The position numbers and the translations under genes were made by a program. Positions 1 through 63,795 of a stretch of 64,000 bases of DNA are shown here, piece after piece. The notes under the pieces were generated by a model, which saw only the letters and a program-made list of their open reading frames with translations, had not been told where the DNA came from and did no database searches. Every line of letters starts with the position of its first letter. Positions within the stretch are counted from its first letter, which is position 1. The DNA is from Bugula neritina (lineage: Eukaryota > Bryozoa > Gymnolaemata > Cheilostomatida > Bugulidae): contig OZ037765.1 of assembly GCA_964035545.1 (NCBI GenBank), positions 32,859,004-32,923,003 on the forward strand, written 5' to 3'.

Positions 1-2
1 AT

Positions 3-899
3 AGCGTGTGGTGGCCTTCTATGTCAAAGGCTATTGAGGCTATGATCAGCAATTGTGCTGAATGCAAAATCCATGCAGCTAAAATTACAGAGCCATTACG
101 TCCTTCTGCAACTCCAGATAGACCTTGGCAACACCTTAGCACTGATTTGTTGACTTATAAAGGCCAAGTATACCTTCTGGTTATTGATAATTATTCAAGG
201 TATCCTGAACTTGCCTTGCTGGGAAACTCTGACTTTTCTTCAAGTAAAGTAATAACACACCTAAAATTTATTTTTTCACGACATGGCATACCTGAAATAC
301 TATTGTCAGATAACGGCCCGCAATATGCAAGTGCAGAATTTAAACATTTTTCTGTCGAGTATGGATTTACCCATGTGACTAGCAGTCCACATTATCACAG
401 AGCGAATGGAGCAGCTGAGCGAGGAGTAAGGACCATCAAAAGCATGCTTGCAAAAGAGAAAGATCCTTATTTGGCTTTGTTAGCCTATAGATCCTCACCG
501 CAGTTTAGCTCATACTCTCCAGCAGAATTGTTAATGGGTAGAAAATTGAGATCCACTGTACCCATCCATCCGGATAAGCTTAAACCTGAACTCCCTGACC
601 ATGACTTATTCAAAAGGAGCAACGATCAGTATAAAGAGAAAATGAAAGAAAATCATGACAAAAATCCTAAAGTGCGCCCTCTTTTGCCAGTAAATAAAGG
701 AGACAATATGATGGTGAGAGATATGCAAAGAGAAGGCTATGCTGCCTCTTCTTCAGATAATATTACTCGTCGAACAAATGTCATGACTGACACTGGACCT
801 TTAATACGTAACAGAGCTGATATAACTAATATCCCAACACGATGTTCTGAGCGAACCAGAAAAGTGCCACGCTACTTAACAGATTTTGATTGTACATAA
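3..899 (+). CDS. pol: Ty3/Gypsy integrase, 3' part of pol (partial)
   Basis: Integrase joins retroelement DNA into the host chromosome. The frame is open from the left edge, so the 5' end is cut by the window. The WWP motif and the Cys-X2-Cys (NCAEC) of the HHCC zinc module are visible at the start. The catalytic triad is complete, counting from the valine codon at 6: Asp47 (STDLL), Asp102 (SDNGPQ) and Glu138 (GAAERG), with 35 residues between the last two as in retroviral-type D,D35E integrases. The C-terminus is short, lacks a clear GPY/F module and ends in a basic stretch. Overall sequence suggests the Mag-like side of Ty3/Gypsy and differs clearly from the element at 38-46 kb. The frame is unbroken, so this copy is not very old. 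Confidence 0.85.
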   Translation, partial: SVWWPSMSKAIEAMISNCAECKIHAAKITEPLRPSATPDRPWQHLSTDLLTYKGQVYLLVIDNYSRYPELALLGNSDFSSSKVITHLKFIFSRHGIPEILLSDNGPQYASAEFKHFSVEYGFTHVTSSPHYHRANGAAERGVRTIKSMLAKEKDPYLALLAYRSSPQFSSYSPAELLMGRKLRSTVPIHPDKLKPELPDHDLFKRSNDQYKEKMKENHDKNPKVRPLLPVNKGDNMMVRDMQREGYAASSSDNITRRTNVMTDTGPLIRNRADITNIPTRCSERTRKVPRYLTDFDCT

Positions 900-1010
900 T
901 TTATTATCCACGCCTGTAATATAAGTTGCACTTGATTTAATTACTGTTGTCAAACCTTTTCTTTTGTGTGTTTTTTTTTTGGTTGTTGTAGCCTGAAACT
1001 AAAGAGGGGA

Positions 1011-1416
1011 TGTTGTAATATTTACACAGTTTATGTAAACTTGGAGTTACCTTTTCTTGATGTTTTAACTGATCAATTATTATTCTGTTTTTGAAAATAA
1101 TAGTCACTTCCTGTTTGACTAACTATAGTGCTTGATTAAAACAATTTGAAGATGAAAACTAATCCACTAATAATTGCTAGATAAATAGACATCAAGAGAA
1201 TAAAACACTCTCAACCCACTATAATTAGTTAGTCTCCTCATTGTTCACAGCGTACCTTGTTAGTATAGCAATGTAAACACTAGTAGGCCGAACATATTAG
1301 GGACGCTAAGCATTAGGATAATTGTCTTTCGATATACACAGGAGCACAACTCCTTACAATATTACTGACTCTAAGCATTACTATTGGTTACCATTAGCTG
1401 TAATGCTCTTGTTACA
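1011..1416 (+). repeat. 3' LTR of the left Ty3/Gypsy element
   Basis: The LTR begins TGTTGTAATA directly after the polypurine run. An AATAAA polyadenylation signal lies at 1199-1204, preceded by a TATA-like ATAAATA run near 1181. The start is well supported; the right end is set only approximately, because the matching 5' LTR is outside the window. Confidence 0.55.
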
Positions 1417-1420
1417 AGTG

Positions 1421-2167
1421 GTTCTTGCTTTATAGCAGTTGTAGGTGTTATTACAGTACTCTTTTATTAGAGATTAAATATTATCAAGCTGAGCTATATT
1501 ATTTTCCTGTAAAATTCGTTTGTAATAAAAACTTGTGTACAAGTGCCTCTCATTCTAAAAAGATAATTTCATTGTTTGAAAAGTTTCACTTTTTTATTTT
1601 TTAAAGGCTTACTTTAAAAAATTCAACTTTTTCTCAAAAATCTTTTGAGAATAATTTCTTATTAAATTCTCTATCTAACAAAAATTAGAAAAATAATTTG
1701 AGCTTGAAAATGTTGTATTTACTCAAAGAAACTCCGTTAAAGTTTCATGAATGCATGTTAGTCCACATCTTTCAAATATATATAATTTCAAACTTCTCAT
1801 GGTATTTCTAAAAATTGCAAGAAACTGGACAAGTTGTTTTGGCTGAGTTGTTTTGCCTTTTAGTTTAAGTAAGCCAGGAAAAGAATACATTTTGTAGTTA
1901 AGGTTTAATTGTTCAAAGTATTTGTAAGCTTCAAATAGAAATTGGTATTTCAATAATTTTTTATTTTGCTTTTCGTTCCAATTCTCTATTTCAACAAATA
2001 TGATGCGATGTAGGTCAAATAAATTTAAACGTTAAAAATTACATGCAATAGCTGATACATCCTAAAACATGCAGTTGTGACTTCCTGCCTATATCTGTAT
2101 TGCATAAAATACTTTTATTTGCATTTAATTTTAGTCTCTTCTCACTATGCATATCTTTATATTACAG
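1421..2167. other. AT-rich non-coding stretch, probably intron
   Basis: No exon, repeat array or RNA gene is visible. A 76-codon minus-strand reading frame at 1723-1953 has no recognisable features. The stretch ends in a clear splice acceptor (ttatattacag) for the first visible LRR exon, so at least its right part is intron. Confidence 0.5.
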
Positions 2168-2305
2168 TCTCAGTCAGCTGACTCAGTTAGAGAGACTAGA
2201 CATAGGAGATAATTCTTTCAACACAGTACCAGAAGTTGTGTCATCACTCACGTCACTTAAACAGTTGAATATGAGTAGATGTGATATAGCCAGTCTACCT
2301 GAGAG
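2168..2305 (+). CDS. LRR exon 1 of the ROC-COR-caspase gene
   Basis: This 138-bp exon lies between an acceptor (attacag) and a GAGAG/gtttct donor and is phase 2 at both ends, so it can be repeated or skipped without shifting frame. It encodes 46 residues, two leucine-rich repeats of 23 residues each (LSQLTQLERLDIGDN..., then LTSLKQLNMSRCDIASLP...). The consensus LxxLxxLxLxxN with a VP/LP end is that of short intracellular LRRs, as in ROCO and Shoc2-like proteins. Confidence 0.8.
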
Positions 2306-5300
2306 GTTTCTGTTTATTACTACTTTACAACATAGTTATTGCCTTCTTTTAATTTATATTTATACACAGCTTATAATATATAACATAATATGCAGTATAT
2401 AAAAGTTTAGCTCAAAATTTAGACTCAGTCTAAGTTTGTGGAAAAATACAATGGGATGTGAAGGGCGGAGTGTAATACGATATAAAAAGTTATCCTATAT
2501 CACTAGATAAAGGTGGATTATTATTTTGTGTCTACTGCAATATTAAAATACTACAGGATCTCAGCTATGCAAAAATTTATTACTGGGTATTCTGCTAAAG
2601 ATTTCATGGAAAAAGAATATCAGTTATAGAATATTATTAAGGAAAGCAATGACTTACATGAAGTACTGGTACCATCTCACAACTGTATTTTGTTACTCAC
2701 TATTATACATCGAGGGATGGTATTTATATTACTAAAAGAAAGAATTAGGGATGACAATATATCCTGACAATTTAAAATCCATTTACTGTTTCATTGATAA
2801 TTTTTTTACAAACTAGGAATCATTGTTATATAATTCTTTATTCTCTTGCTGTTGTATGCTTTGTATTACAGTTTCTCCCAGTTAACTCAGTTAGAGAAAC
2901 TAGACATAGGAAACAATCCTCTTAACACAGTACCAGATGTTGTGTCATCACTCACATCACTTAAACAGTTGAATATGAATAGTTGTGATATATCCAGTCT
3001 ACCTGAGAGGTTTGTGTTTATTACTATATTTTACAACATTGTTATTGCCTTCTTTTAACTTATATTTATACACAGCTTATAATATATATAACATAAGATG
3101 CAGCATATAAAAGTTTAGCTCAAACTTTAGACTCAGTCTAAGTTTGTGGAAAAATACAATGGGATGTGAAGGGCGGAGTGTAATATGATATAAAAAGTTA
3201 TCCTATATCACTAGATAAAGGTGGATTATTATTTTGTGTCTACTGCAATATTGAAATACTACAGGATCTCAGCTATGTACAATTTTATTACTGGGTATTC
3301 TGCTAAAGATTTCATGAAAAAAGAATATCAGTTATAGAATATTATTAAGGAAAGCAATGACTTACATGAAGTACTGGTACCATCTCACAACTGTATTTTG
3401 TTACTCACTATTATACATCGAGGGATGGTATTTATATTACTAAAAGAAAGAATTAGGGATGACAATATATCCTGACAATTTAAAATCCATTTACTGTTTC
3501 ATTGATAAATTTTTTACAAACTAGGAATCATTGTTGTATAATTCTTTATTTTCTTGCTGTTGTATGCTTTGTATTACAGTCTCTCCCAGTTGACTCAGTT
3601 AGAGGAACTAGACATAGGAGACAATGCTCTCAACACAGTACCAGATGTTGTGTCATCACTCACATCACTTAAACAGCTGAAGATGAATAGTTGTGGTATA
3701 TCCAGTCTACCTGAAAGGTTTGTGTGTCACATGTTTATTACTATTTCACAATATCATTATTAGTGATTTTTATACTATATTTAAATACAGCTTTTAGCAT
3801 AGTTAATAATAATATACAGGATACAGAGTGTAGCTATAATTTCAGCACTCAGCTGGAAATTCCTGTGTTATACAATGATATAGTTATAAGAGTAGAGTGT
3901 AATATAGAAATCCACCCTTAAGCATGGTCATGGATTAGAGCCAATGCCAGGATATTATAGTGATAAAATATTCAGTCATTTATAAAAAAACACAACATAT
4001 TTATTCTTGAAGTATCACGGTGCCGTATATAAAAGTTTATATTTATGCAAGTATTTTGTTAAGCATTTGATAAACATATATATTCCCTAGAGTTAGGGGT
4101 ACATGACTATGACTGTTGGTCACAGGTTAATAATGATGGAATAGTCATAAGAAGAGGTGTGAAATTAATACCTGCAGTAACAAATAGTTATAGCATCAAC
4201 TAGCTTTATTTGTCACCCATTTTAAAAATAAAAATAACAGCCGACTCCCTAATGTATATACTATGCATAGTAATGTATACTATGTATAGTGATGTATACT
4301 ATGTATAGTAATGTATACTGTGTATAGTAATGTATACTATGTATAGTAATGTACAATATGTATAGTTTGTTGTATACTATGTATAGTAATGTATGATATG
4401 TATAGTAGTGTATACTATGTACATATAGTAATGTATACTATGTATAGTGATGTATACTATGTATAGAAATGTATACTATGTATAGTAATGTATACTATGT
4501 ATATAGTAATGTATACTATGTATAGTAATGTATACTATGTATAGTAATGTATAATATGTATAGTAATGGATACTATGTATAGTAATGTATACTATGCATA
4601 GCAATGGATACTATGTATAGTAATGGATACTATGTATAGTAATGTATACTATGTATAGTGATATATACTATGTATAGTAATGTATACTATGTATAGTAAT
4701 GTATACTGTGTATAGTAATGTATACTATGTATAGTGATGTATGCTATGTATAGTAATGCATACTACGTATAGTAATGTATAATATGTATAGTTTATTGTA
4801 TACTATGTATAGTAATGTATGATATGTATAGTAGTGTATACTATGTACATATAGTAATGTATACTATGTATAGTAATGTATACTATGTATAGTAATGTAT
4901 ACTATGTATAGTAATGTATACTATGTATAGTGATGTATACTATGTATAGTAATGTATACTATGTATAGTAATGTATACTATGTATAGTAATGTATACTAT
5001 GTATAGTGGTGTATACTATGTTTAGTAATGTATACTATGTATAGTGGTGTATACTATGTATAGTAATGTATAATATGTATAGTAATGTATACTATGTATA
5101 GTAATGTATAATATGTATAGTAATGTATACTATGTATAGTGATGTATACTATATATAGTAATGTATATTATGTATAGTAATGTATACTATGTATAGTAAT
5201 GTATACTATGTATAATGGTGTATACTATGTATAGTAATGTATACTATGTTTAGTAATGTATACTATGTATAGTAATGTATAATATGTATAGTAATGTATA

Positions 5301-8300
5301 CTATGTATAGTGATGTATACTTATATATATAGTAATGTATATTATGTGTAGTAATGTATACTATGTATAGTGGTGTATACTATGTATTGTAATGTATACT
5401 ATGTATAGTGGTGTATACTATGTATAGTAATGTATACTATGTATAGTAATGGTATACTACGTATAGTAATGTATACTATGTATAGTTATGTATAGTAATG
5501 TATACTATGTATAGTGGTGTATACTATGTATAGTAATGTATAATATGTATAGTAATGTATAGTTTTCATGGTAATGTATAATATGTATAGTAATGTATAA
5601 TATGTATAGTAATGTATAATATGTATAGTAATGTGTACTATGTATAGTAATGTATACTAAGTATAGTAATGTATACTATGTATAGTAATGTATACTATGT
5701 ATAGTGGTGTATACTGTGTATAGTAATGTATACTATGTATAGTGGTGTATACTATGTATAGTAATGTATACTATGTATAGTAATGTATAATATGTATAGT
5801 AATGTATACTATGTATAGTGGTGTATGCTATGTATAGTAATGTATACTATGTATAGTAATGTATGTATGATATGTAAAGTGACAAAATGATCTACTAAGT
5901 CAGTAAACTATTTTATAAACTATGTGTATTTATATAAAGCTTTACCATTGCCTTTTTCTTAAATAGTATAATTGGCTGAATTGCAAGATTAGTTACTGGC
6001 GTATTTGTATTTATATTTATATAGTATTCTGAGCCTCTCAAACCTCCAACATCTGGACATCTCTAATGCAAGGATGACATGTTTACCTGATAACTTCCAC
6101 CAATTATCTAGCTTGTGGCGTCTTAACCTCAGTGGAAATGATACCCTAAAAGCTCTAACACCAGAGATAGCTGACATGCCTCCATTAATGTTAATAACTA
6201 CTCAGGGTTGTGAGTCATTGACTTCACCACCATATGAAGTTTGTCAACAAGGAGCAGGTGCCATCAAGCAATACTACACAGACATTAGAAACAGTGACAG
6301 TGTAGAGGTTTCCATGGTAACTTTTGCTGTCATTGGTCAGACTATGTCAGGGAAGACTAGTCTGATTAGGACACTACAGAGTACAGATAGAACCAGAGTT
6401 CTTACTCACAGAGTAGATGGTGGACTTGATGATGATACAACTCCTGTATTCAAAATGGAAGATGTTTGTGTAGATAATGATGTGCTGAGATTCATTGACT
6501 TTGGAGGTCATGAAATTTATCAGTCAACATATCGGTTTACTTTAAAGCCAAATTGTATCCCAGTTGTTGTTGTGAGTATTGAACAGTATGAAGACCTGCG
6601 GCATGATATTGGTGGTAATGAGGCAGTGAGGCGACTGTATTTTGATTGGTTGTCACATCTTTACCTGACCTATCCTAACCTTGGGCCTCCTAACTTGGTG
6701 TTGACCCATTTAGATAAAATTGATGAAAGCGAGCTCAAAGAGATTGAAGACAGTTTCTTTAGCCACACAAAGCATGTTTTTGAAATCGTCAGTCGCGATG
6801 AAAAGAGCAAGTGGAAGAATGGAGGTGCTTTTGCAAAAATTAAACATTTTGAAGCAAAGAATATGTTCAAAGCTGAAGATATTTATAAAGTTGGAAATTC
6901 TTACTGCGAAGCTTTCATACAGCTAAAACATAGACTGCTGAGAGAGAGTAAGCAGTTTGTAAAAGCAATACCAACAACCTGGGTGGAAGTTGAACAAGCC
7001 TTGAAGAAATTTGAAAAAGGTTACATGTCATTCCAAGATATCTTCAGCCAGTTGTCTAGCAGCATTTCATTAACCGAAAATCAACTTGACATCATCCTGA
7101 CATACATGCACAACTGTGGCATCTTGCTCTGGTACAAGAATGACAAGGATTTGCGTCTTTACATATTCTATCACATCCCCACAGTCACTTCACTCCTGCA
7201 AGTTCTGTTTACTCATGATGACACAGTTTGGCAGCGTCGTCTGTCAGATTTCGCTAATCCTACTTCTGCTGGTCAACAATTCCTCACACTAAATGAATAC
7301 AGTACGTTTGCTGAAAGATTTGCTTCAACAGGAATCATGCATGGTAAAATGTTCAAACATTTGTTAAGAACCGAAACAGACTTTCAAGAGAATGCTGCAA
7401 TGAGAGTTGCGGCTCAAATTTTGCTGTCATTCAGAATAATGTATCGCTCTACACTACAGAATGAAGAGAGCTCTTTCATTGTGCCATACTTCTGCAAGGA
7501 GTTCCTTAGTCACAGCTTACCTACCACAGGGAGTTGTGTCACCTTTCATGCTCAGCTACGTTTTGATGGTCTTCCACTTCCACAGTATGCCTACCACCAG
7601 CTTGCTGTGGACATAGTCAATTCTTTCTCTCAAGAGTCAGACTGCATAACAGCCAGAAATAATGGAGCTCGTGTGGTGAAGAAAGATGTAACCTATCAGC
7701 TGGTACATGACTACAAGTCAGGAATAGTAAACATGTGTGTTTCCTTTGACTCCAGACAAGTATGCAGAGCATGGGAAGTTCTGGTTGACATCACCAACTC
7801 CTCTATTGAATACATTGAGACCAGATGGTGTGCCTGTAAAATAGGATGTAAATTCTTCTGTGCTCACTGTGGGCTAGAACAAGACCACCACCCGTCTAGC
7901 CTCATGAATCCTTCCTGGGTCCAGTACCATGGCAAGAGATGGGCGCCCTTACTTCCTTCTTTCTTGCCTAATCAGCTCAGATGTAAGAACTTTTTTATTG
8001 TTTGCATTACTACTGCTAATTTAAGCAACTATCAACGTTAATTCTTTGAGCTGTGATGCTTCCTATTTACATTTATGTCGATTGTCCGACTTTAGCACAG
8101 CAGCTCAATGATTATGAAGATTTCAATGCAGAGCTTGACTACTTTAAATATAGACGTCTCTTCTCTAGCCACAGACATCACAATGTAAATTGGATTGCTG
8201 AATCAGCTGGTGGGAAGATATTCAGATGCAAGAAAGATTCTTCCACACCTTCATGTCTCCTCAACCCTTGTGAGTACTTTATACACTCATAATATAAAAA

Positions 8301-10864
8301 CGGTTTTGCAGTATCATTGCTTATACAAATTGTGTAGTGTTTCTGAACCTAGTTATTACATTTCTCAAAATTCACTAGTTTATTACCATAACATGTGTTG
8401 CAGGCTCCAGTTTGTCTGAAGAAGAGGGTGCATGTCTTTCAAGTTATCTCAGCAAATATCAAAGGACCAATTCTACAGGTACTGTATGTTCATCTTATTC
8501 TAGTAATTTTTGTTATAGTAACTATAGAAAGAATCTGAGTATGAAATAAACATATGCTCAGTGTGTGAATATTTAAAAACTCTGAATGTTTATGTATGTA
8601 CAACATATACCGTGATGTATTGCTATCAACAGTCTATAAAATGATGTAGCATACGATAATAATAAATTCAGGTGAGACTCATGTTGAATCTGATAATGAA
8701 GAAACTGATGCCGATAGTGATATCTCTGAACACGAAGACTTCAGCTCACCACAAGAAGCCGGTAACATCAAAATGGAAGTTTCTGAGACCAAGAAAAAAA
8801 AGATAAAACATCTGTTCTATTCTAATGAGGTACTTTAATAAATAGTTTATAGTTGTTAGGTATGAACTACATAGTTCAAATATTTTATTTATAAAGTATT
8901 ATTTGTGGTGAAATATCTTTCACTTATAAAAACATGTTGCTCTTTTGAGTATGGTAAATGCACAATAAGTTTTCTCTGCTTTCTACCAACCAGTTGAGCG
9001 CAGCTGAATTTAGTAAATTTAATTATAGAGTTCAGTTGCATTTATATTTTCATTGGTGCTGTAGAGTATTGCAGTGAAGGCTGTCTGCAAAATTCCATAA
9101 AATTATTCAATCTTATCAAACAAATAAGAGAATGATCACCAGTTGTTAAAAAAATTTTATAGGTGTATAAAATGAGTGAGACTGTGCGAGGAAGAGCTCT
9201 GATTATCAACAACAATGTTTTCCGTGATAGACCCGAGCTCTATAGAGAAGGATCTGCAGTGGATGTGTCTAATATTCGAGCAGTTTTGGCACATTTGAAC
9301 TTTGAAGTAGATGTGAGACGTGACAGAACTGCTGAGGTGCCCAAACATATAATGCCATATTTTGTTATACTTGTAAACATTAGACATTTCATATTATTCC
9401 TATATACTATATTTAATCTCATGATTTATTCACAGGAAATGCTGAAGGATATCAAAGATGAGACTCAAAACCCTGACAATGAAGACTATGGTATGCATGT
9501 CACTGTACTCATGTCTCATGGTGGAACATTTGGTGCTCATGGAGTTTTGTATGGAACTGATGTGAAACCAGTGAAGCTTCTCAATGTCTTTGATTTGTTG
9601 TCTTCCGACAACTTCAAGCACATGGCTGGGAAACCTAAAGTTGTGATCGTGGTAGCTTGTAGGAGTGGTGAGTTGTACATATATCTCAACGCTATACTCA
9701 TATATCATGTAAATTTTTATAACGCTTGAAAAGTTTACAGCTCTCCAAATGACATGTTTTATTGTCTTTCTATATGAATAAACTATTATTTTGCTTATTT
9801 TCATTTAAAATTTCTTGTATCTTATTTCTGTACTATAGAACACTAAACCTTGTATTTATCCCAGCAGACAGATACAATAGATAGAGTAGTGCTTCTTTTA
9901 CATTCATAAAATATATTTATTGGAATGTGTAGCTGCCACAGATGCCCTGATAGAGAGAGTAGAGGCTGAGTCTGGAGAGAGTTCCACCAGACAGGAAACT
10001 CAACAGGAAACTCAACGGAAAACTCAACAGGAAACTCAACAGGAAACTCAACAGGAAACTCAACAGGAAACTCAACAAGAAACTCAACAAGAAACTCACC
10101 AAACTACAAGCAGACGGAATGACTTGAATGTTGATGATCTGTTGATACTGCAGTCGTGCTTTGATGGTAAATCTTTGTGCTACTTGTAACTGATGATACT
10201 GTGTAGTATATGTATCTATATGTTGGTAGCTGTAGAAATTCTCTGATTAGCTGTTGAGGTTTAGACTATTATATAATTTTTCTTAAAATAGGAATACTGC
10301 AATATTACTTTCTACAAAACTCTTAATTTATAAATGCCTCATAATTTATGTTTTCTGTTGTTGCTGACCATTAAGGTTTATCATGTAGTTTAAGCCTAAA
10401 ATGTAGAGCGTGTGCAGTTATGTATCTGAAGTATATTAGTGTCAGGTCAACTCTTTCAAACAGAGAAGAAACTATTTTTTCAGGTCGAAACTCTATAAGA
10501 GATGCAAACTATGGAAGTCCATTTATCAGAGAGCTGGTTAAAACTCTGTACAAACATTCTTCTCATAGAGATCTTGTCACTCTGTTTGATATCGTAAGTG
10601 TGCAATATTAGTCTTTGGTACAGATACTGAGAAGTTTCCAGATGTCTCCTGGTATAAGAGATTCAGAGATGTACAGGTGTTCTATTAATCTGATAAACTG
10701 GTACCTTGTTACAGGTGCAAAAAAGAGTTAAGAGAGTCACTAAAAAGATCTCTGAGACACGTCCGGAATTTTCTGAGCAGGTGCCGATAACAACAAAGAC
10801 TCTCACAGACATGAGGAAGATTTTCTTATTTCCTAAACACAAGATCTCTTCTCCTGCCGAATAG
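2168..10864 (+). CDS. LRR-ROC-COR-caspase fusion protein gene (5' end outside or unresolved)
   Basis: Twelve exons can be joined with matching splice phase: 2168-2305, 2872-3009, 3580-3717, 6025-7982, 8096-8269, 8404-8478, 8672-8829, 9163-9336, 9436-9667, 9933-10166, 10484-10593 and 10715-10864. Together they encode about 1,226 residues without a stop. Domain order is six leucine-rich repeats in three exons, a further LRR pair, a ROC GTPase, a COR domain, an acidic then lysine-rich linker, and a whole caspase (p20, QETQ linker, p10). LRRs usually bind ligands, ROC-COR is a GTP-driven dimerisation switch, and caspases cut after aspartate, so the inferred role is an all-in-one sensor and death protease in the cytosol. 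No signal peptide or membrane segment is seen. The true start is not in view. A paralogue lies to the right on the same strand. The ROC, COR and caspase calls are strong; that one mRNA carries all of them is inferred from phase and spacing. Confidence 0.8.
2872..3009 (+). CDS. LRR exon 2 of the ROC-COR-caspase gene
   Basis: A second 138-bp, phase-2 exon encodes two 23-residue LRRs almost identical to those of the exon at 2168. The flanking intron is also nearly the same, so exon and intron arose together by tandem duplication. Confidence 0.8.
3580..3717 (+). CDS. LRR exon 3 of the ROC-COR-caspase gene
   Basis: A third 138-bp, phase-2 exon encodes two LRRs (LSQLTQLEELDIGDN..., LTSLKQLKMNSCGISSLP...). 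The donor is CTGAAAG/gttt. The following intron departs from the duplicated unit and contains the 19-bp minisatellite. Confidence 0.8.
4250..5873. repeat. 19-bp minisatellite, about 85 copies, intronic
   Basis: The unit is GTATAGTAATGTATACTAT with single-base variants (TAATATG, GTGGTG, GGATAC). It fills about 1.6 kb of the intron between the last 5' LRR exon and the ROC exon. Each unit holds the palindrome-like GTATAC, so strands can fold. No coding or regulatory role can be shown. Confidence 0.95.
6025..7982 (+). CDS. ROC-COR exon (last LRR pair, ROC GTPase, most of COR)
   Basis: This 1,958-bp exon starts after atttatatag, phase 2 in, and ends at AGAT/gtaaga, phase 1 out. It opens with one more LRR pair (LSNLQHLDIS..., LSSLWRLNLSGN) and the LRR-to-ROC bridge PPYEVCQQGAGAIKQYY. 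The ROC domain shows the P-loop GQTMSGKTSL (from about 6335, Lys-Thr intact), the G3 motif DFGGHE (about 6497) and a G4-like THLDK (about 6704) in place of NKxD, as is common in ROCO proteins. The COR domain follows from about 6960. ROC binds and hydrolyses GTP; COR dimerises and couples the cycle to the effector. An ATG-less 5' end shows it is an internal exon. Confidence 0.9.
8096..8269 (+). CDS. COR C-terminal exon
   Basis: This 174-bp exon uses the acceptor gactttag, whose phase (1 in, 1 out) exactly matches the ROC-COR exon before and the linker exon after. It encodes 57 residues with an acidic start (NDYEDFNAELDYF) and Cys/His-containing sequence. It is followed by the strong donor gtgagt. 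Confidence 0.75.
8404..8478 (+). CDS. Linker exon 1 between COR and caspase
   Basis: This 75-bp exon (acceptor tgttgcag, donor gtactg) is phase 1 in and out and encodes a serine- and glutamate-rich segment (SSLSEEEGACLSSYLSKYQ). No domain is recognised. Its phase and position support a transcript running from COR to caspase. Confidence 0.65.
8672..8829 (+). CDS. Linker exon 2, acidic then lysine-rich
   Basis: This 158-bp exon (acceptor aaattcag, donor gtactt) is phase 1 in and 0 out. It encodes a strongly acidic run (ESDNEETDADSDISEHED) followed by a basic KKKKIK patch just before the caspase. Several Asp residues could be caspase cleavage points that free the protease, but this is only an inference. 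Confidence 0.7.
9163..9336 (+). CDS. Caspase p20 exon 1
   Basis: This phase-0 exon of 58 codons begins VYKM and carries the caspase start RGRALIINNNVF. It is followed by REGSAVDVSNIRAVLAHLNFEV, in which the Arg codon at 9244-9246 matches the S1-pocket arginine of the RSGTDVD region of animal caspases. This is true caspase sequence, not metacaspase or paracaspase. Confidence 0.85.
9436..9667 (+). CDS. Caspase p20 exon 2 with catalytic His and Cys
   Basis: The exon encodes VLMSHGG, with the catalytic His at 9517-9519, and ends in VVIVVACRS, with the catalytic Cys at 9658-9660. The usual QACRG pentapeptide reads VACRS here. The glutamine that normally helps hold the P1 aspartate is thus valine, and the closing glycine is serine. 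The donor is gtgagt, phase 1 out. The dyad is intact, so activity is possible; substrate choice may differ. Confidence 0.85.
9933..10166 (+). CDS. Caspase inter-subunit linker (QETQ repeats) and start of p10
   Basis: This exon enters in phase 1 and encodes ATDALIERVEAESGESS, then nine QETQ-type tandem repeats, then NDLNVDDLLILQSCFD. The last segment corresponds to the start of p10. In caspases this inter-subunit loop is cut during activation. The Asp residues in ATD and NVDD are candidate cut sites. The long Gln/Glu/Thr repeat is unusual. Confidence 0.8.
9992..10099 (+). repeat. 12-bp in-frame coding minisatellite (QETQ x 9)
   Basis: Nine units of CAGGAAACTCAA with few changes keep the caspase reading frame. 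The near identity of the units suggests recent expansion or gene conversion, so length may differ between individuals. Confidence 0.9.
10484..10593 (+). CDS. Caspase p10 exon 1
   Basis: This 110-bp exon (acceptor tttttcag, donor gtaagt) is phase 1 in and 0 out. It encodes GRNSIRDANYGSPFIRELVK, the counterpart of the caspase WRN...GSWFI segment. The Arg at 10486-10488 matches the second S1 arginine, while the preceding Trp is Gly. Confidence 0.85.
10715..10864 (+). CDS. Caspase p10 terminal exon
   Basis: The phase-0 last exon encodes 49 residues and the stop TAG (10862-10864). VQKRVKRVTKKI followed by EQVPITTKTLTDMRKIFLFP matches the closing p10 helix and the usual final strand before the C-terminal KxxFF/YFF-like end of caspases. 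A short basic tail follows. Confidence 0.85.
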   Translation: MQKRVKRVTKKISETRPEFSEQVPITTKTLTDMRKIFLFPKHKISSPAE

Positions 10865-11091
10865 CTGGGATTCATGTTGCTGGGTTTAGCTTTCCCTTTG
10901 TGGCACTGGCCTACCATTATATAATCTTGCATGTTATAACTCAACTCTCTAATTTATAGCTTGTACGTTCAGTTAGCAATGAGCAGAGTACTGGTTATAT
11001 ATCACACTTATTATCTACTACTTTATCAAAACTAGTCTACGCTATTTTTATGTGATGGCTAATCTTTCTTAGAAGATTATTGATGTGTTTT

Positions 11092-11097
11092 AATAAA
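11092..11097 (+). terminator. AATAAA polyadenylation signal
   Basis: AATAAA lies 228 bases after the caspase stop codon and is followed by T-rich sequence, fitting the 3' end of the ROC-COR-caspase transcript. Confidence 0.5.
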
Positions 11098-11109
11098 TTT
11101 AACTTTTAC

Positions 11110-12170
11110 AGTTTGTTTATTTTCAACTAACGTTTTTATATATGCATGTTTTTTTTGTGATTTCATGCTATTTAGAGTTAACTATAGTAATACACAATAC
11201 TTTATATCATTTGATTGACTAAAGTTTTGTTTTACACCTGCACTTTTATTATAATAAATTATATTTAAAAAGTCATAGATGCTTGCTCTTCCCATTAGTT
11301 TTTTTAACAAGAGTAGAAAGTATTTATTGAAAATAGATTTGTCTATCTTTTCTGTCAATTTATCCAGCCAGGGATCTTTAAATCACAGTGTTATTAAGCA
11401 AGTTCTGCCAGCGAAAAATAGCTCAAACATAGCAGAGTAGTTGTGGTAATTAGTATTATATATCCTGCACAAGTTTGTTGGGAGAAGTGAAAAATGAGTA
11501 TTATAGCTGTTATGCAACTCTAAATAACTTCTTATCTTTTGTAAATTTATTAAAACCTATTATTATAATCCTCGTCATTTATGACAATGATTAGAATAAT
11601 CCCATGTGTGTATATGCTTGTGTACCAGGCACATATTTTTGGACCAAGTAGGGTTTTTTGGAATGTTGATTGCTACATCCCTCGAACAAGAGGCATATGG
11701 ATGGGCAATGCTTTATTCACTGCACTCTGATATTATATATGCATCACCCTGACCCACTTTAGTCATATGCATACACTACACTCTTACATTGACGCTTGCT
11801 GATTGATGTTTAATACACATTGTTATTTATAATTACCATCAGAAGTATAGTAGTGTGGTTGTTTGAGAATTTTTAGACTTCAGAATTGAAAAACAGCTAT
11901 TCTATTTTCAATGAATATACAATAGCATAACTTCCGGTTTAAGAAATGAAAGGAAACTGCTTGAAGCAGCACAGATTTGGAGGTGACTTAATGAGCAGGA
12001 GGTCAAGAAGGAGGTCTCAAGTTAGGGGTTGGGAGTTTAGCTTTCTTTAGTGTTATACCAAAGCATAAGGGGGCTCAGGCTAAAGTAGACTCTTGTCTGT
12101 GTATTCCAAGTCATGTGACCTAGGGGGCGACTAAAGAAACTGAAGTTAGTGGATCTAATGATAGGAGGGC
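11110..12170. other. AT-rich intergenic DNA
   Basis: No coding exon, RNA gene or repeat array is visible between the 3' end of the caspase gene and the MITE at 12171. Confidence 0.5.
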
Positions 12171-24092: not shown

Positions 24093-27000
24093 TCATTGTC
24101 TATCAGACAGCCATTTGTTGGTAAAATTCCAGATATGCTTATTAAGTAACTGAATCATTTTATCTGACAAATTTTTAAAAGCTACTTCAATTTTGTTAGC
24201 TGGTATACAAACGGCGTTGGTCCACCGAGTGAAGTGTCCATGAGTAACAGTATATAGGTATTTCTTTTGGTGAATAACCGCATAGGTCCAACTAGGTCCA
24301 CCACCACTATGTGCCATGACTGACCGGCGTACAGCTGGTGCCGACTCAAGGTCTCCGTAGGGCGGCCATGTTTACTAGCCTGGCAGACCTCGCACAGCCG
24401 TATTCACAGTCTTACGTCCCGAGTCAGTCCAGGCCAGTACCACTGCAGCCGTAGACATCTGATGACCCGACGAACCCCAGCATGGGCTTGTTTGTGGGTG
24501 TCCCTGATCAGGTCCCGTCGGAGGGCACACGGGCATACAACAAACTCCCTCTCCTAACGACGGTTGTCTGCTGCGAGTGATATGGTGAGTAGACCATCTT
24601 CGCTGACCTTGAGGGAATCTCAGCTGCTACAGAGGTGTCGGTGCTCGACGTCCCCCTGCTGCTGCTGCTCCTTGGTAGGTCGGCGGCCGTCCCTCTTGGC
24701 CCGGAATATGTCTGCTCTTGTTTCTGCCTGCGTCTGCTAGAGCTGGCTCAGCTCCTTGACGCTTTGATACTTTGTGGGGTTGGCTTGTAGAGCGTTGACG
24801 ATGTCCGGTAGGTGTTCTGACCGAAGGCGGCCGTGTTGCCAACTGTAGACATCGTCGTGTCCTGGCTGCTTCTTCTCGTCAAAGCGGGCTGGTCCTCTGT
24901 CCCGTCTCTTGATGTGTAACCACTGTTTGCAGTTTTGCTCCAACTGACGGCTCATCCCATCGACGTTTCCATGCTTCTTCCCAGCACAATGTTCTATCCT
25001 ATAGGAGAACTCAGCAAAAATCTCCAGCTAACTAGCCCCCTAGCTCAAAGGCTCTGTACAGTTATACAGCCATATCAGAGATGCATGGTCCATTCATAAC
25101 CTGAACATTCTCCCATACAGGTATGGCCAGAAGTGCTTGACCGCCTTGACTACTGCCAGGAGCTGCTTCTTGGTAGTGCAGTAGTTCTTCTTGGCAGTCG
25201 AGAGAGTCTTGCTGTAGAAGGCCACTACCACCTGAGTCTCACCCTGGACTTGTGACATAGCAACTCTCACATTGTGGTCACTGGCGTCGATGTCCAGGAT
25301 GTACTCTTTGGCTGAGTCGGAGTATGCCAGGATAGGCGCCTCTATCAGCCGACTCTTGAGGTGGTCAAACGCCTGCTGCTCCTTCTGTGTCTAATGCCAC
25401 TGGACTCCCTTGGCGGTTAGACGATTCAACAGCTGTGCCACCCTTGCAAACCCGGGAATATACTGCCTGTAATACCTCACCAGGCCCAGGAATGCTCGCA
25501 ACTCAGAGAGATCTTGGGGGACATTCTACTCTTCCACAACCTGCACCTTCTCTAGGTTGGTAGCAACCTCGTTACGGTAAACTACATGACCCAGGTACTT
25601 GACCTCTGGCTGTAAGAGTGCACACTTGGAGGACTTCAGGTTCAGCCCGGCAGTCCAAAGACAATTAACGAGCTCCCACAGACGACTGACATGAGTCACA
25701 AAGTCTGGGGAGATACATATGACATCACCTGAATAGATGAGCAGGATCTTCCTGTGCAATCCACTGAGGACCTGCTCTATGAGTCGTTGGAAGGTTGTCA
25801 GGGCAGTTGTTAGTCTGAATGGCAGTCAGTACGTTCCATTTCCAGAGCCCGGCGCGAGTGATAAATGCTGCCTTGTCCTGTGCATCAGGACTGAGGGACA
25901 CTTGCTAGTACCCACTCAGCATACTAAAAGTACTAAAGTACTTGCTTCCCATGAGGGCAGCTAGAGACTCATCTATCCGAGGAAGGGGCTAAGCATCCTG
26001 GGTGGAGTCACTGTTGAGTTTGCTGTAGTTTACGCAGAACCTCCAGCTACCATTTTTCTTCTTGACCAGAACTACTGGAGAACTCCACGCACCGTGGGCA
26101 GGCTCAATCAAGTCCACATTAAAAAATCCTGCACTTGTCTGCTTACTTCCTTCTTCTCCATTCCCAGTCGTCAAGTCGGCTGCCTGATGGGAGTGGTCCC
26201 AGCTGCCAAGGGTATCTCTTTACACACTGCCTTGGTCAGCTTCATACCCTCATCTCCATAGCTGAAGACATCACTGTAATCCAGGAGTAGTCAAGCCAGC
26301 TCCTGGAATTCGGCACTGCCATTACAGTCCCCGCAGGCTTCATCATACAGGTCAGCCACATACTCCGGTACCGTTGCCCGACTGGCCCAAGGGGGAATTC
26401 TTTGGGTGTCGGCTACTGTCTCCAGTGCCAGCCACAGATCCGCTTTAGGGATAGAGTGGTATTTCCCCATCAGGGCGCCAGCCGGTAGTTTGATCTGCTC
26501 AGACAAAGGGTTGATGCATTGTACAAGAGGTTTTCCCTGGCAGTCTAGCCGATTCAAACTGTTTGCCAATTGAATTTTCCCTGGCATCTTCTCCACCAGT
26601 CGCAGTGTGGCTATCTTCTTGCAGCTAGCTTTGCAGCACAGGGTAGCCTGGGATCTTCCGGATACCATGCAGTCCTGCACTACTTGGACTCCGCCCACCA
26701 AGGGCCTGCCAAACTTTTCAATGCAGACAAGTTCCTTTCTAGACATCACCAACTCCGGATTCTGGAAATTCATGCGACACTGGTGTTTCTTCAGAAACGG
26801 CTTGCCCAGAATAGCGTCCTCCTTCAGGTGACTGACTATGTCGAACAATATAGTTAACTCCGAGGAGGTTGGTGCAGGTTTAGCAACGGCGACTACTTGG
26901 GCCTCTTCCTTAGGTGTGTCCTCCACTTGACTCGCCGTAAAGTCTGCTCCATGGGAGGTGTCTACTCAATAGTAGGACCATCCCAACTCTAGAGCCTCTT

Positions 27001-27525
27001 CTATAGTAAAGTTCATGGCAACCAGGTAGTACTTCTGGAGTCCCTCATTGCTCACTGTCCTGAAGAAAGCCCCATAGACCAGCTCTCGCTGTGCCTCTGG
27101 ATCGGTTCAGCTGTATGCTATTAATGCCAGTTTTTCTATGGCCTTTGCATGGTCCTGTAGAGAGGTCCTTCTGTCTCTCCTCATGCTCTGTAGCTTGTCC
27201 CTAGCATCTCTGGTGGTCATATCAAATCGTGCTCAGAGCGCCTGAAAGATGTGGTAGATATCATCCCCGAGCGCATAGCTCTTAGCTTTTCCAGTCAGGC
27301 AGGACCGTAGCTGTAGAAGACGTACCGGTCCGACCATTTGGCGAAGGTAGCCACGTCTTTGATTTTCCTTATAAACTGTTTGACATTGCTGTCGCCTTCA
27401 AAAATCAGAGGCTGAAAGCGATACCTGTCACCAGGTGGCGCCGGGATGACCAAGCCGGCTTCTCGGAGGGCTGTTACTGGGTTCTCTAGTGTGAGAACCT
27501 CTCCTCCTTTTTCTATCCCCACCAT
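24093..27525 (-). pseudogene. pol: Broken gag-pol of the decayed Ty3 copy
   Basis: Pieces in several frames match the intact pol in order. They are a gag start (MVGIEKGG..., from 27525), the end of protease (LKEDAILGKPFL, near 26820), reverse transcriptase (near 26150-25520), RNase H (near 25380-25130) and integrase (24960-24093). The zinc-knuckle end of gag and the DSG active site of protease are deleted. The polymerase YxDD motif reads YSGD at about 25730, so the catalytic Asp pair is broken. The copy cannot be autonomous. Confidence 0.85.
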
Positions 27526-27570
27526 CTGGCATTTCTCACTATCTCTTGTAAGGCTTCCTGATTATTTGTG

Positions 27571-27588
27571 ATCCCACCGCTGCCACCA
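27571..27588 (-). other. tRNA-Leu-type primer binding site of the decayed copy
   Basis: The plus-strand ATCCCACCGCTGCCACCA equals the 3' end, with CCA, of animal tRNA-Leu (AAG/UAG type). On the element strand it reads TGGTGGCAGCGGTGGGAT, one base from its 5' LTR. Confidence 0.75.
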
Positions 27589-27589
27589 A

Positions 27590-27919
27590 TGTAGTAACTT
27601 GTGGGTTATTGAATTTTATTAGGCCGAGAACATAACTCCTCGTCAGAGAAGCGATAATAGAGTGTTGAGTAGTGTGTGCTGTATAGTATTTATTGGTGTA
27701 GTTGATTCTTCCAGTCTGAGCTCCTGTCTTCAGCTGACTGGAGCTCAAAATGTGCCTCCTCTTATACTTCCCAGACAAAGGGTTCTAGAACATTCGACCA
27801 ACAATCGGTCAAAGTTCGGAAATGTCGGGCTTAGTATTCCGACATTCAAAATGTCGGAGTTCGACATTCGGAATGTCGGCAAGCCAGCAAACCAAACTTC
27901 GGTCAACTGTCAGTTTACA
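27590..27919 (-). repeat. 5' LTR of the decayed Ty3 copy
   Basis: The 330-bp LTR is bounded by TG...CA (plus-strand TGTAGTAACT at 27590, TTTACA at 27919) and lies directly beside the primer site. Its U3 part (about 27790-27890) holds several palindromic CCGACAT/ATGTCGG motifs. Confidence 0.65.
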
Positions 27920-45445: not shown

Positions 45446-45457
45446 CTTGGATGCACT

Positions 45458-45475: not shown

Positions 45476-45476
45476 C

Positions 45477-59814: not shown

Positions 59815-62800
59815 GTAATTTTTTGTCAAAACATCTCAAAGATTTATCGAGTGAATGAATGCTTTAAACTTTAAAAAGCCATGATTTGTTGATGTGAATT
59901 GAGTATTTAAGGTTTGATATCAAAAAAATATCTAGTAGGTATAATGCAAACACTTGTGCTTTTGTTAGCAAGTAGAAAAGATATTCATGTGCGAATTGTT
60001 AATTTGTAATTTTAGACTGAAACACAGATTGCTGAAACTAAGGAAAAAGGTAATTTTACTAATATAATACAAAAGCTGTAATATATTCTCAAAAACTTAA
60101 TGGTTAAAGCCCCTGATTGCAATGCAAGCATAAATAGTTAAGTAATGCATGCACTTGCAAATAACCAAATAATATGTATAAATGATAATTGTATCTCTTA
60201 CAATTGTATATTGTATACAAATGTTTCTTCATCAGCTTCTTAATAGACAATATTACTAGAGCAAGGTATCTTCTGATGTCATACAACTACAGTTTGGATG
60301 CCTTCGAAGACACTGCCAGCTCACTAAGCTACACAGCAACTGCAATCAAATCAAAGTATATGTAACTTATAAAACTAAAAGTCCCAAAAAAGGACCTGCA
60401 TTGTGCTTTTCCTTTCGTCAGTTTTATTTAGTGTGTAATGTCACGTATCATGCTTTATTTGAGTATGATGACTCAGAAACAATCAACAGTTGATATTTCC
60501 TGTATGATAGTCTTTTTGGTCTTGGGTTTCTAAAATCTCAGACCAAGTCATTACAGGCAGGCTACTTGTTTGTAAGCGTTATTTTATTGACGATGCAGCG
60601 TTAGTTTCATTTAGTGAGTCAGCCTATCTTACAGTGACCAGTAAATTGCTTCGATAGTTCTGCAGTTAGTTAAGTGAGTCTGAGAATAAACTGAAGTTCT
60701 CTGTTAGCCAGTTTCGCAATAACTTTGTGATTAATTCCAATACATTCCTATTGAAGACACAGCAATAAATGCATCTTTGATCAGTGCTTCTAAATTTTTG
60801 TTGCATAATTTCTTCTGATGTGAACTTTCAAAAGAGATAGATTATAGACTTTTAGCTGCAAACATAGCAACTGTTATATTTCACAAAAAAATTTAGAAAA
60901 AACTTAGGGAGGGGGTGCTAAAATAAGCCCTTACAGAGCTGTAGATGCATACCTTAAGCTATATATAAGTTTGAATTTTTTTATCTGCCAAAATGGGGTG
61001 GCAATTAAAATGTGAAAACAGGATAGCATTGAAGCTCTGTTGATAAAATACCAACTACAGTGCTGGGTGGGTCATATCTTTAGGTTGGATTGGAACAAAA
61101 TGGCGCTGCTTGGTAAATTGTGTGACGCCTAACCAAGATTTGTTTACAGACCAACTTAAATGTTCTCTTTTGATTTAATTAGGTGTAACCTCGTATGTCT
61201 ATTTTCTCTCCTAGATCCCTTTGGCTACGAAGTGTTGCTAATTACAAATATTAGATAAAATATTACATAATTTTAAAGACAGTTATATAGATTAAAATAA
61301 TCATCACTGCGCAATTAAAAATATTCACTATAGCTGCCTGTTTAAAGCGCTGGTCATGTGTACAGAGTTGCATGACTATTATGAGTTTATCAAAGACTGG
61401 TAGGATATACTTTGTAATAATTACTTCAAATACCTATTCCAGCAGGCCATAAATTCTTTCAATGAATTTTAAAAATAATTGATAACTACTACTGCAACTA
61501 AATGGGTTTGACAAGTATTTAGATGTTGGTTATACATGGAGTAGAAGACATTGCGTTTCATCAACTATAATTATTTAACCTGCATTAACTGGCTGCAAGA
61601 AAGTTGTGCTGAAAAGAAATGATATATCCACAAATTTAGCTGCAGTATTTGTACATGCATGTCAATAATATTGTGTCTCTGTTGTTACAGAAATGATCAG
61701 AATCTGGTTCAGACATTCTGGACAGGATCCTGTAGACTTGGAAGATGTACGCCAAGCTACAACCAAATCATACACCTTGAGTAAAGTGAAGACTCAAGTT
61801 GGGAGTTATCAACTCACTCACCTCACGTTAGAGGAGATAATTCCTAAGAATATAGGAGAGATTGCTTCTCATGCTGTCTGTTTGGTACTCCGTAAGATAA
61901 CTGACAAGCAGAGTCTGAATAAGTGAGTATTTATAGTTGAGTATAACTGAGTCAGACAACTCACACATATTGTATGATTTCAATATGAATATGTTGATGA
62001 CTTTTAGAAAGTTGTACATGGTACGCTATATTAGGAGTTGAATACACAGCAGCGATGTGATGTATATTATTATGTTAATTTATATTCTTCTCCGATTGTA
62101 TGTTCTTATATTGTATCTTTATCTTACAGTCTCAGTCAGCTGACTCAGTTAGAGATACTAGACATAAAAGACAATACTCTCAACACAGTACCAGATGTTG
62201 TGTCATCACTCACATCACTTAAACAGTTAAATATGAGTGGATGTGGCATATCCAGTCTACCCGAGAGGTTTGTGTGTCACATGTTTATTACTACTTCACA
62301 ACATCATTATTACTACTCTGTAACCTATATTTATACACAACCTATATAGTATATAAAATAATATCCAGACTATAGGGTGTGGCTATAATCTCTGTACTCA
62401 GCTTGAGTTCCCTGTTTTATACAATTAAACAGTAAGGGTAGAGTATAATTATTTGGAGAGCCCTCCTCTCAAATGACCATGAATAAAACCTTTAGGACTC
62501 GTGAAAATTTCATAAGTAATTTGAGTATTTTTAATGTTGTGACATGCACAAAAAGCCAATGTGTTTTTAAGTGTCATATTAGGTGCTAAAGCCAGCTTTA
62601 CCCAGGATATATCTTTGACAAATAATCAATATAGTATTTACAAAATACAAGTCGTGATAACATGTATATCTCTGTGCTGTATAAAATACATATGTTATGT
62701 GTAATTTTATTCTCTTGTCATAGCATAAATTTATATTACAGTCTCTGTCAGCTGACTCAGTTAAAGATACTAGACATAGGAGGGAATCCTCTCAACACAG

Positions 62801-63795
62801 TACCAGATGTTGTGTCATCACTCACATCACTTAAACAGTTGAATATGAGTCACTGTAGAATATCCAGTCTACCTGAGAGGTTTGTGCTTCACACGCCTGT
62901 TACTACTTCACAACCTCATTATTACCTTGATCCCTTTAAAGTATATCTGTACACAATTTATATTATGCAAAATAATATAAAGGATATAAATGTGTAGGTG
63001 AATTTTGTACCCAGCTTAAAGTTTTGGTAAAACACAATGAGATGGGAAGGGTGGAGTGCATTATGATTTGAAAACCACCCTCTCTCATGAAAAGGTGGAT
63101 TATAATTTTGTTCTACTTCTATATTAAAATATCCCAGCTATAACGTAAAATTATATTGCTACTTAGCATTTTGCTAAAGTTTTCATGTGGAAAGAATACT
63201 AGATATAGGTTGTTACTAAAGAAAACAGTGGTCTAGGGGCTTGAACCCGACAAAGGCCATTAGTGATGTTAGGAAGACTACCCAGTACCCAGTCACAATT
63301 GCTCCTGTGCCCCATCTGAATAAGTCCTTAGCCCAGTTTAACGAAAAATCATTTCATCGGGGATTTTCTCACAGGGATGGTGATTATAAATTTTCGTCAG
63401 TTTTATTTTTAAATAAAGCGAACAAACCACTTGTTATATAAAGTACTAATACCTATTAGTGACATAATTTGTTACTGATCACTTATACATCAAATCTCAT
63501 TTATCTTATTAGATGAAACAATTTAAGGTAAAATATTGTGAAGATTGCAAAAAAAATATTTTGTTTTGTCGAGAGAACTTTTCGAAGCTATAAACTGCTG
63601 CATGATATTTCATTATCTTTCTGTTGTAAATTTTTATATTATATTCTTATATTACAGTTTCTCCCAGCTGACTCAGTTAGAGACACTAGACATGGTAGGG
63701 AATCCTCTCAACACAGTACCAGATGTTGTGTCATCACTCACATCACTTAAACAGTTGAATATGAGTAACTTTGGTATATTGAGTGTACTTGAGAG
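59700..63795 (+). CDS. Gene 2, continued: linker exons D-F and LRR exons (3' end outside)
   Basis: Six exons join in phase: 59700-59814, 60016-60049, 61691-61922, 62130-62267, 62742-62879 and 63658-63795. Exon D accepts exon C (24045) in phase 2. The first three encode a helical region, and the last three are 138-bp LRR exons of the same kind as at 2168-3717. By analogy, a ROC-COR exon and perhaps a caspase should follow to the right of the window. If C and D are truly joined, the intron is about 35.7 kb; unseen exons could lie between. Confidence 0.6.
60016..60049 (+). CDS. Gene 2 exon E (34 bp micro-exon)
   Basis: A 34-bp exon (acceptor aattttag, donor gtaatt) encodes TETQIAETKEK, phase 0 in and 1 out. 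It is short, but it fits exactly between exons D and F. Confidence 0.5.
60050..61690. other. Intron of gene 2, no other feature supported
   Basis: AT-rich sequence between exons E and F. A short CACAGCAACTGCAATC stretch at about 60336 resembles part of the Ty3 fragment at 59262. Confidence 0.4.
61691..61922 (+). CDS. Gene 2 exon F, domain before the LRRs
   Basis: This 232-bp exon (acceptor ttgttacag, donor gtgagt) is phase 1 in and 2 out. It encodes about 77 residues, including IRIWFRHSGQDPVDLEDVRQ and LTLEEIIPKNIGEIASHAV. It resembles a small helical, perhaps death-like, fold, but no family mark is clear. It is the last exon before the LRR array. Confidence 0.7.
62130..62267 (+). CDS. Gene 2 LRR exon 1
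   Basis: 138 bp, phase 2 both ends, two 23-residue LRRs (LSQLTQLEILDIKDN..., LTSLKQLNMSGCGISSLP). Confidence 0.8.
62742..62879 (+). CDS. Gene 2 LRR exon 2
   Basis: 138 bp, phase 2 both ends, two LRRs (LCQLTQLKILDIGGN..., LTSLKQLNMSHCRISSLP). Confidence 0.8.
63658..63795 (+). CDS. Gene 2 LRR exon 3
   Basis: 138 bp, phase 2 both ends, two LRRs (FSQLTQLETLDMVGN..., LTSLKQLNMSNFGILSVL). The usual SSLPER end is changed to LSVLER. The intron before it (63028-63180) is homologous to the introns at 2450-2600 and 3160-3300. Confidence 0.8.

What the first reader, a model, noticed from the sequence alone, without database searches (positions are those of the whole stretch)
2168..10864. LRR-ROC-COR protein fused to a complete caspase
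Seen: twelve exons joined in consistent splice phase link LRRs, a ROC GTPase (P-loop GQTMSGKTSL, DFGGHE, THLDK), COR, a charged linker and a caspase with p20, p10, catalytic His and Cys, ending in one stop. Known: animal ROCO proteins usually carry kinase or death domains, or none, after COR (LRRK, DAPK, MFHAS1), and caspases are usually recruited by death-fold domains. Inferred: a single-chain sensor, GTPase switch and protease, a self-contained death or immune module. I do not know of a described LRR-ROC-COR-caspase family.
Basis: partly seen in the sequence, partly recalled or inferred. Interest (0 to 1): 0.93.

Follow-up and report, generated by a model that had tools for sequence, protein, structure and literature searches.

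The report
Bryozoan LRR-GTPase-caspase single-chain gene family
A moss animal carries a large family of genes that seem to put a recognition domain, a GTPase switch and a cell-death-type protease into one protein, jobs that animals usually share out among several proteins.

Summary
Twelve exons (2168-10864) join through 11 of 11 GT-AG introns into one open frame of 1225 residues: LRRs, ROC, COR, linker, complete caspase. The genome is Bugula neritina (Bryozoa), chromosome 1. The layout recurs: of 68 scored ROC-COR exons, 66 have a same-strand caspase exon within 10 kb downstream, 0 upstream, against a mean of 2.7 with randomised positions; in a wider set 87 of 91. Another bryozoan, Watersipora subatra, has one annotated protein co-linear with nearly the whole window protein; aligned to the window it recovers 12 of 16 inner exon boundaries. 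The ATG at 9172 lies in a motif that caspase-3 shares. The gene starts outside the window, probably 77 kb upstream. The genome gave one NACHT and no NB-ARC match, so the family may stand in for NLRs; that is inference. LRR-ROC-COR-caspase is already stated in print for bacteria; ten searches of open papers showed no animal one. Transcription, activity and function were not tested.

The parts
2168..2305 (+). exon 1 of the part in the window: two LRRs, 138 bp, symmetric phase
   Evidence: GT-AG, open frame
2872..3009 (+). exon 2: two LRRs, 138 bp, same phase
   Evidence: 87.7% identical to exon 1
3580..3717 (+). exon 3: two LRRs, 138 bp, same phase
   Evidence: 92.8% identical to exon 2
6025..7982 (+). 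exon 4: last LRRs, ROC GTPase and COR (652 complete codons at 6026-7981)
   Evidence: fold matches CtRoco and LRRK2; the Watersipora alignment ends it at 7918
8096..8269 (+). exon 5: linker, first part
   Evidence: the Watersipora alignment starts it at 8120 and splits it
8404..8478 (+). exon 6: linker
   Evidence: the Watersipora alignment ends it at 8487
8672..8829 (+). exon 7: acidic and lysine-rich linker
   Evidence: same boundaries from the Watersipora protein
9163..9336 (+). exon 8: caspase p20, first half, begins VYKM
9436..9667 (+). exon 9: caspase p20, second half with catalytic His and Cys
9933..10166 (+). exon 10: p20/p10 linker with an in-frame 12-bp minisatellite
   Evidence: the Watersipora alignment starts it at 9960
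10484..10593 (+). exon 11: caspase p10, first part
10715..10864 (+). exon 12: caspase p10, end, with the stop codon
   Evidence: AATAAA at 11092
61691..61922 (+). N-terminal exon (candidate Met at 61693) of the NEXT gene of the family, whose ROC-COR exon lies beyond the window
   Evidence: weakly like the N-terminus of the Watersipora protein (E 0.008); splice sites read; eight such exons alternate with eight ROC-COR exons on chromosome 1 (by eye)
62130..62267 (+). LRR exon of the next gene, 138 bp
62742..62879 (+). LRR exon of the next gene, 138 bp
63658..63795 (+). LRR exon of the next gene, 138 bp

Best explanation
The stretch is the 3' part of one gene of a large bryozoan family that encodes a single-chain LRR-ROC-COR-caspase. 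Shown by sequence: domain order, intact frame, splice sites, and that ROC-COR and caspase exons lie together throughout the family. Inferred mechanism: the LRRs sense a ligand; the ROC GTPase changes state; a COR-mediated change in dimerisation brings two caspase domains together, which activates them by proximity as for initiator caspases; they cut themselves in the p20/p10 linker and then cut targets, giving cell death or an immune signal. No CARD or death-fold domain was matched in the joined protein, so the switch would act on the protease in cis. Most likely role: recognition of microbes inside the cell, the place that NLRs hold in other animals.
For: Gene. Family: 66 of 68 ROC-COR exons (68 scored of 135 candidates) have a same-strand p20 exon within 10 kb downstream, 0 of 68 upstream; random-shift control mean 2.7, maximum 8 of 68 in 200 rounds; 87 of 91 in the union set. 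One chain: the Watersipora protein P0025 aligns over window residues 1-1216, 30% identity, E 3e-176; the Bugula gene model P0004 (EB796_002463) carries ROC, COR and part of the caspase. Co-inheritance: ROC-COR and p20 distances correlate, Mantel r 0.68, 0 of 2000 permutations as high, 20 sequences. Constraint: Ka/Ks of linker exons 5-7 is 0.34 and 0.35 against L004 and L005, over 92 and 96 codons with many gaps. Catalytic pair: His in 19 of 20 and Cys in 17 of 20 aligned sequences. NLR gap: NACHT 1 match of 49 candidates, NB-ARC 0 of 2, CARD 4 of 10. Roco monomer-dimer cycle: PMC6337361 passages. Proximity activation of apical caspases is general knowledge, seen here only as titles in a reference list.
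Against: No transcript was seen. Against the near copy L003 the linker Ka/Ks is 0.95, on 15 changes. The nearest relative by ROC-COR and by p20 is the same in only 10 of 20 sequences, so some exchange between copies, or noise, is possible. P0004 as annotated lacks the first p20 exon and the p10 (by eye). The Gln before the catalytic Cys of caspase-3 is Val in the window copy and varies in the family, and 3 of 20 sequences have lost Cys or His, so activity and Asp specificity are open. A p10 exon was found in only 12 of 18 fetched loci. AATAAA motifs occur between COR and caspase at 8545, 8661 and 8837, so a short COR-only transcript is not excluded. The family could serve allorecognition or development instead of immunity.
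Confidence: 0.65

Rival explanations
1. Two adjacent genes: an LRR-ROC-COR gene and a caspase gene, always duplicated together but transcribed apart.
For: No transcript was examined. AATAAA motifs lie between them. 44 of 131 p20 exon places have no listed ROC-COR exon within 10 kb upstream, so caspases without ROC-COR may exist; ROC-COR and p20 nearest relatives differ in 10 of 20 sequences.
Against: One annotated protein in Watersipora spans all, and its alignment recovers 12 of 16 inner boundaries, both sides of the exon 7 to exon 8 junction among them. The ATG at 9172 sits in the caspase core motif YKM. Linker exons look constrained against L004 and L005.
Confidence: 0.05
2. The protein senses self/non-self or takes part in the cyclic breakdown of zooids in a colonial animal, and is not an antimicrobial receptor; the caspase still acts by proximity.
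For: Bugula is colonial and the family has at least 91 ROC-COR loci; cyclic polypide degeneration in bryozoans is recalled, from no call.
Against: Nothing here tests it; many copies with LRR exons and a single NACHT match fit a microbial sensor as well.
Confidence: 0.2
3. The caspase domain is mainly a scaffold or decoy: many copies are weak or dead proteases that regulate other caspases.
For: L017 has Cys to Tyr and L012 Cys to Ser; L008 has His to Gln and no Cys in the column, with an uncertain alignment there; the Gln before the Cys is kept in 5 of 20 sequences.
Against: 17 of 20 keep Cys and 19 of 20 keep His; p20 of the window copy against L003 has Ka/Ks 0.09.
Confidence: 0.1

Closest known systems
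Bacterial LRR-AP-GTPase(ROC)-COR conflict proteins (PMC8195603; passages and section 15 read)
   Same: N-terminal LRRs, ROC-COR in the middle, effector at the C-terminus; caspase is named among at least 24 effector domains; several paralogues in one genome.
   Different: Those are bacterial with many effector types. Here it is an animal family with spliced genes, a caspase whose best solved relatives are caspase-3 and other animal caspases, and the same effector at 87 of 91 loci. Kinship of the two was not tested.
Animal ROCO proteins LRRK1, LRRK2, DAPK1, MFHAS1
   Same: ROC-COR fold; LRRK1 and LRRK2 structures are among the top fold matches.
   Different: Kinase, death domain or nothing after COR (PMC6337361 passages; MFHAS1 recalled); here a caspase.
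Chlorobium tepidum Roco (6hlu)
   Different: The solved stretch holds no caspase; only 16% identical.
Caspase-3 and relatives
   Same: YKM start, Arg, His and Cys of the active site, p20 and p10.
   Different: No DED or CARD matched; ACRS in place of QACRG; a repeat-bearing p20/p10 linker.
NLR inflammasome with caspase-1 (recalled; PMC11121540 passage)
   Same: LRR sensor, NTPase switch, caspase output (function inferred here).
   Different: ROC in place of NACHT, and the caspase in the same chain.
Brown algal LRR-ROCO genes (PMC11378527, abstract and passages)
   Same: LRRs in symmetric phase-2 exons, suited to exon shuffling.
   Different: 72-bp exons with one LRR there, 138-bp exons with two LRRs here; LRR-ROC-COR alone there.
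Aplysia TIR-ROCO proteins (PMC9334734, passages)
   Same: ROCO domains joined to an immune domain in another lophotrochozoan.
   Different: TIR, not caspase.

Membership tests
ROCO | ROC GTPase domain | tested here: met
   Pfam Roc 20.1 bits in the window copy, under the cut-off of 27; P0004 29.7 and P0006 33.4. GKTSL P-loop in 19 of 19 Bugula models and in P0004. Fold match to Roc.
ROCO | COR directly after ROC | tested here: met
   COR-A 41.1 bits, cut-off 35.3; fold aligned to CtRoco over model residues 1-633. COR-B is not listed by Pfam for the window copy.
ROCO | LRRs before ROC (most groups) | tested here: met
LRRK group | kinase after COR | tested here: not met
   Pfam lists the caspase and no kinase in the joined protein.
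DAPK group | death domain after COR | tested here: not met
   none listed; whether anything but LRRs precedes ROC upstream of the window was not read.
Metazoan caspase (C14) | p20 and p10 with a His-Cys pair | tested here: met
   Peptidase_C14 135 bits, profile positions 1-229 of 233; H1012 and C1059 align with caspase-3.
Metazoan caspase (C14) | QACxG motif | tested here: not met
   VACRS in the window copy; Gln two before the Cys in 4 of 18 other Bugula models and in Watersipora (L008 uncertain).
Metazoan caspase (C14) | cleavage after Asp | not testable with these tools
   needs an enzyme assay.
Initiator caspase | CARD or DED prodomain | tested here: not met
   none listed in the joined protein; the N-terminus outside the window was not read.
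NLR | NACHT or NB-ARC domain | tested here: not met
   not listed; the NTPase is ROC.
Bacterial LRR-ROC-COR-effector systems | LRR-ROC-COR with an effector domain at the C-terminus | tested here: met
Bacterial LRR-ROC-COR-effector systems | many different effectors among paralogues | tested here: inconclusive
   a caspase at 87 of 91 loci; other effectors were not searched for.
Bacterial LRR-ROC-COR-effector systems | common descent of the fusion | not tested
   no bacterial sequence was aligned.

The most novel reading that the evidence does not exclude
In cheilostome bryozoans the NLR-adaptor-caspase relay has been replaced by a family of about a hundred single-chain LRR-ROC-COR-caspases, each a complete receptor and executioner with modular LRR exons, in which the GTPase controls a protease directly.
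Probability: 0.35. Interest if true: 0.93.

Novelty: new variant of a known kind. Interest (0 to 1): 0.82.

Why it matters
If right, an animal lineage put sensor, switch and caspase into one chain and expanded it to at least 91 ROC-COR loci, while NACHT and NB-ARC gave one match and none. That offers a one-protein system in which to ask how a ROC-COR switch drives an effector, an open question for LRRK2 and other Roco proteins, with a protease as read-out. It would also extend to animals a layout so far stated in print for bacteria.

Tried and rejected
First exon boundaries gave no open frame and were corrected. Diversifying selection on the LRR exons: not supported, Ka/Ks of the three exon pairs is 0.43 to 0.58, and 0.37 to 1.04 for the LRRs of exon 4 against L003-L005, although two introns are more alike than the exons beside them. 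Caspase-3 Arg207 in the paralogues: alignment too gapped to judge. Separate caspase start at 9172: judged unlikely.

Literature: ten searches listed no description of an animal LRR-ROC-COR-caspase that I recognised; they cover open-licence PMC papers only, and listings were cut to the best rows. Seen as passages by term search: PMC7159879, PMC8242945, PMC11378527, PMC6337361, PMC11480708, PMC7576161, PMC9334734, PMC11121540, PMC12902671; PMC8195603 as passages and section 15; no occurrence of the terms asked in PMC13326412 and PMC11508797; all others only as listings.

Sampling: the 18 paralogue loci L003-L020 were picked from COR and Roc hits with the caspase list in view, so they are not an unbiased sample; the census is the test. 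The union of 91 holds the 68, further ones and three; its four misses have the next same-strand p20 place at 10.7, 11.7 and 15.4 kb, and L008, whose own p20 exons were seen. Searches scored 68 of 135 and 66 of 153 candidates, so 91 is a lower bound for ROC-COR loci, intact or not. The random-shift control was run on the 68 only. The 44 unpaired p20 places were not examined. The alternation of N-terminal and ROC-COR exons was worked out by eye.
Full report
What was checked. The finding claims twelve exons joining LRRs, ROC, COR and a caspase. I read 1-12000 and joined the exons. With corrected boundaries all 11 introns are GT-AG, the phases fit and the frame is open for 1225 residues to a TAG at 10862-10864. 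An aligner that I wrote, given residues 601-1225 and the DNA, returned all 16 boundaries from the end of exon 4 to the start of exon 12. Pfam sees LRRs, COR-A and a caspase over profile positions 1-229 of 233; Roc is below its cut-off in this copy.

Where it is. The contig lengths C1 35,640,107, C3 32,418,041, C5 17,720,077, C6 16,049,455 and C7 15,813,509 match chromosomes 1, 3, 5, 6 and 7 of Bugula neritina tzBugNeri2.1 (35.64, 32.42, 17.72, 16.05 and 15.81 Mb; PMC11480708 passages). The total is 215.8 Mb in 295 contigs against 216.00 Mb in 320 scaffolds. So the window is chromosome 1, 32,859,004-32,923,003. The species is inferred from these lengths and from the Bugula protein P0004, 88-89% identical to loci L006 and L007 over ROC-COR, not from a label.

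It is a family. Exon 4 finds 68 scored places (of 135 candidates), all with E below 1e-140. Of these, 66 have a caspase p20 exon on the same strand within 10 kb downstream, 0 of 68 upstream; with randomly shifted positions and strands the count averages 2.7 and never exceeds 8 in 200 rounds. Adding a second query and three places gives 91 loci and 87 pairs. In 18 of 18 fetched loci both p20 exons lie downstream of ROC-COR on the same strand, and a p10 exon was found in 12 of 18; in some of the others the fetched stretch ends too soon. These 18 were chosen with caspase hits in view, so the coordinate census is the fair test.

It is one chain, as far as sequence can say. The protein search with the caspase part found one hit, an annotated Watersipora subatra protein of 1835 residues. 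It begins with Met, carries many LRRs, then ROC-COR, linker and caspase, and aligns with the window protein from residue 1 to 1216 at 30% identity, E 3e-176; Pfam scores its Roc (20.7 bits) and COR-B (17.6) below the cut-offs and its caspase at 113.9. Aligned with introns to the window it gives 8269, 8404, 8672-8829, 9163-9336, 9436-9667, 10166, 10484-10593 and 10715, that is 12 of 16 inner boundaries, with a score of 1266 against 180 for one shuffled control. It disagrees at the end of exon 4, the start of exon 5, the end of exon 6 and the start of exon 10, and adds an intron in exon 5. The Ensembl annotation of that species rests mainly on transcript alignments (PMC12902671 passages), but P0025 is an NCBI entry whose evidence I did not see. 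The Bugula model P0004 joins ROC, COR and part of the caspase; its genome paper used AUGUSTUS with transcriptome hints (PMC7576161 passages), and the model lacks the first p20 exon and the p10. The ATG at 9172 lies in VYKM, which caspase-3 has as SYKM. Linker exons 5-7 have Ka/Ks 0.34 and 0.35 against L004 and L005, but 0.95 against the near-identical L003 with 15 changes. ROC-COR and p20 distances among 20 sequences correlate at 0.68, above all 2000 permutations, yet the nearest relative is the same for both parts in only 10 of 20.

The start lies outside. An exon at 61691-61922 weakly resembles the Watersipora N-terminus (E 0.008; splice sites). Genome-wide its close relatives (80-100% identical) number eight on chromosome 1, counting itself, and alternate with the eight close ROC-COR exons (by eye). 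By this order the window gene would begin near 32,788,404, 77 kb before its ROC-COR exon; LRR exons at 32.84 Mb (L002) lie between. This assignment is inferred. The exon at 61691 belongs to the next gene, that of L003.

How it may work. Roco proteins cycle between monomer and dimer with the nucleotide (PMC6337361 passages), and initiator caspases are activated by dimerisation (general knowledge). Joining the two in cis suggests that the switch sets the distance between caspase domains. This and the sensing role of the LRRs are inferred. The low counts of NACHT (1 match of 49 candidates), NB-ARC (0 of 2) and CARD (4 of 10) in the same genome suggest that the family holds the place of NLRs; exon-wise searches can miss diverged or split domains.

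Compared with what is known. Bacterial LRR-AP-GTPase-COR proteins with a C-terminal caspase are stated in PMC8195603 (section 15). Described animal ROCO groups have a kinase, a death domain or nothing after COR; a mollusc has TIR-ROCO proteins (PMC9334734 passages). Ten searches of open PMC papers listed no animal LRR-ROC-COR-caspase that I recognised. I therefore call it a new variant of a known kind.

Noticed in passing
window 2306-2871 and 3010-3579: The two introns between LRR exons are 96.5% identical while the exons beside them are 87-93% identical; exchange of exons between genes is one possible reason.
   Followed up: partly
window 4257-5864: A 19-bp AT-rich minisatellite of about 84 copies fills most of intron 3; the same repeat matches L003 upstream of its ROC-COR exon.
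   Followed up: no
window 9991-10098: A 12-bp minisatellite inside exon 10 codes for QETQ-type repeats in the p20/p10 linker.
   Followed up: partly
window 3-896: ORF that looks like a retroelement integrase, upstream of the first LRR exon (by eye).
   Followed up: no
window 26294-29467 and 38873-45478, minus strand: Long ORFs that look like retroelement proteins, one of 1558 codons (by eye).
   Followed up: no
G000 C1:33884494-33886503: One ROC-COR copy lies in an open frame of 2363 codons, much longer than the others listed.
   Followed up: no
G000, 44 places listed: p20 exons without a listed ROC-COR exon within 10 kb upstream, several of them on C2, C4, C8 and C9; they could be other caspase types.
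   Followed up: no
L008, L012, L017: Family members whose caspase seems to have lost the catalytic Cys or His.
   Followed up: partly
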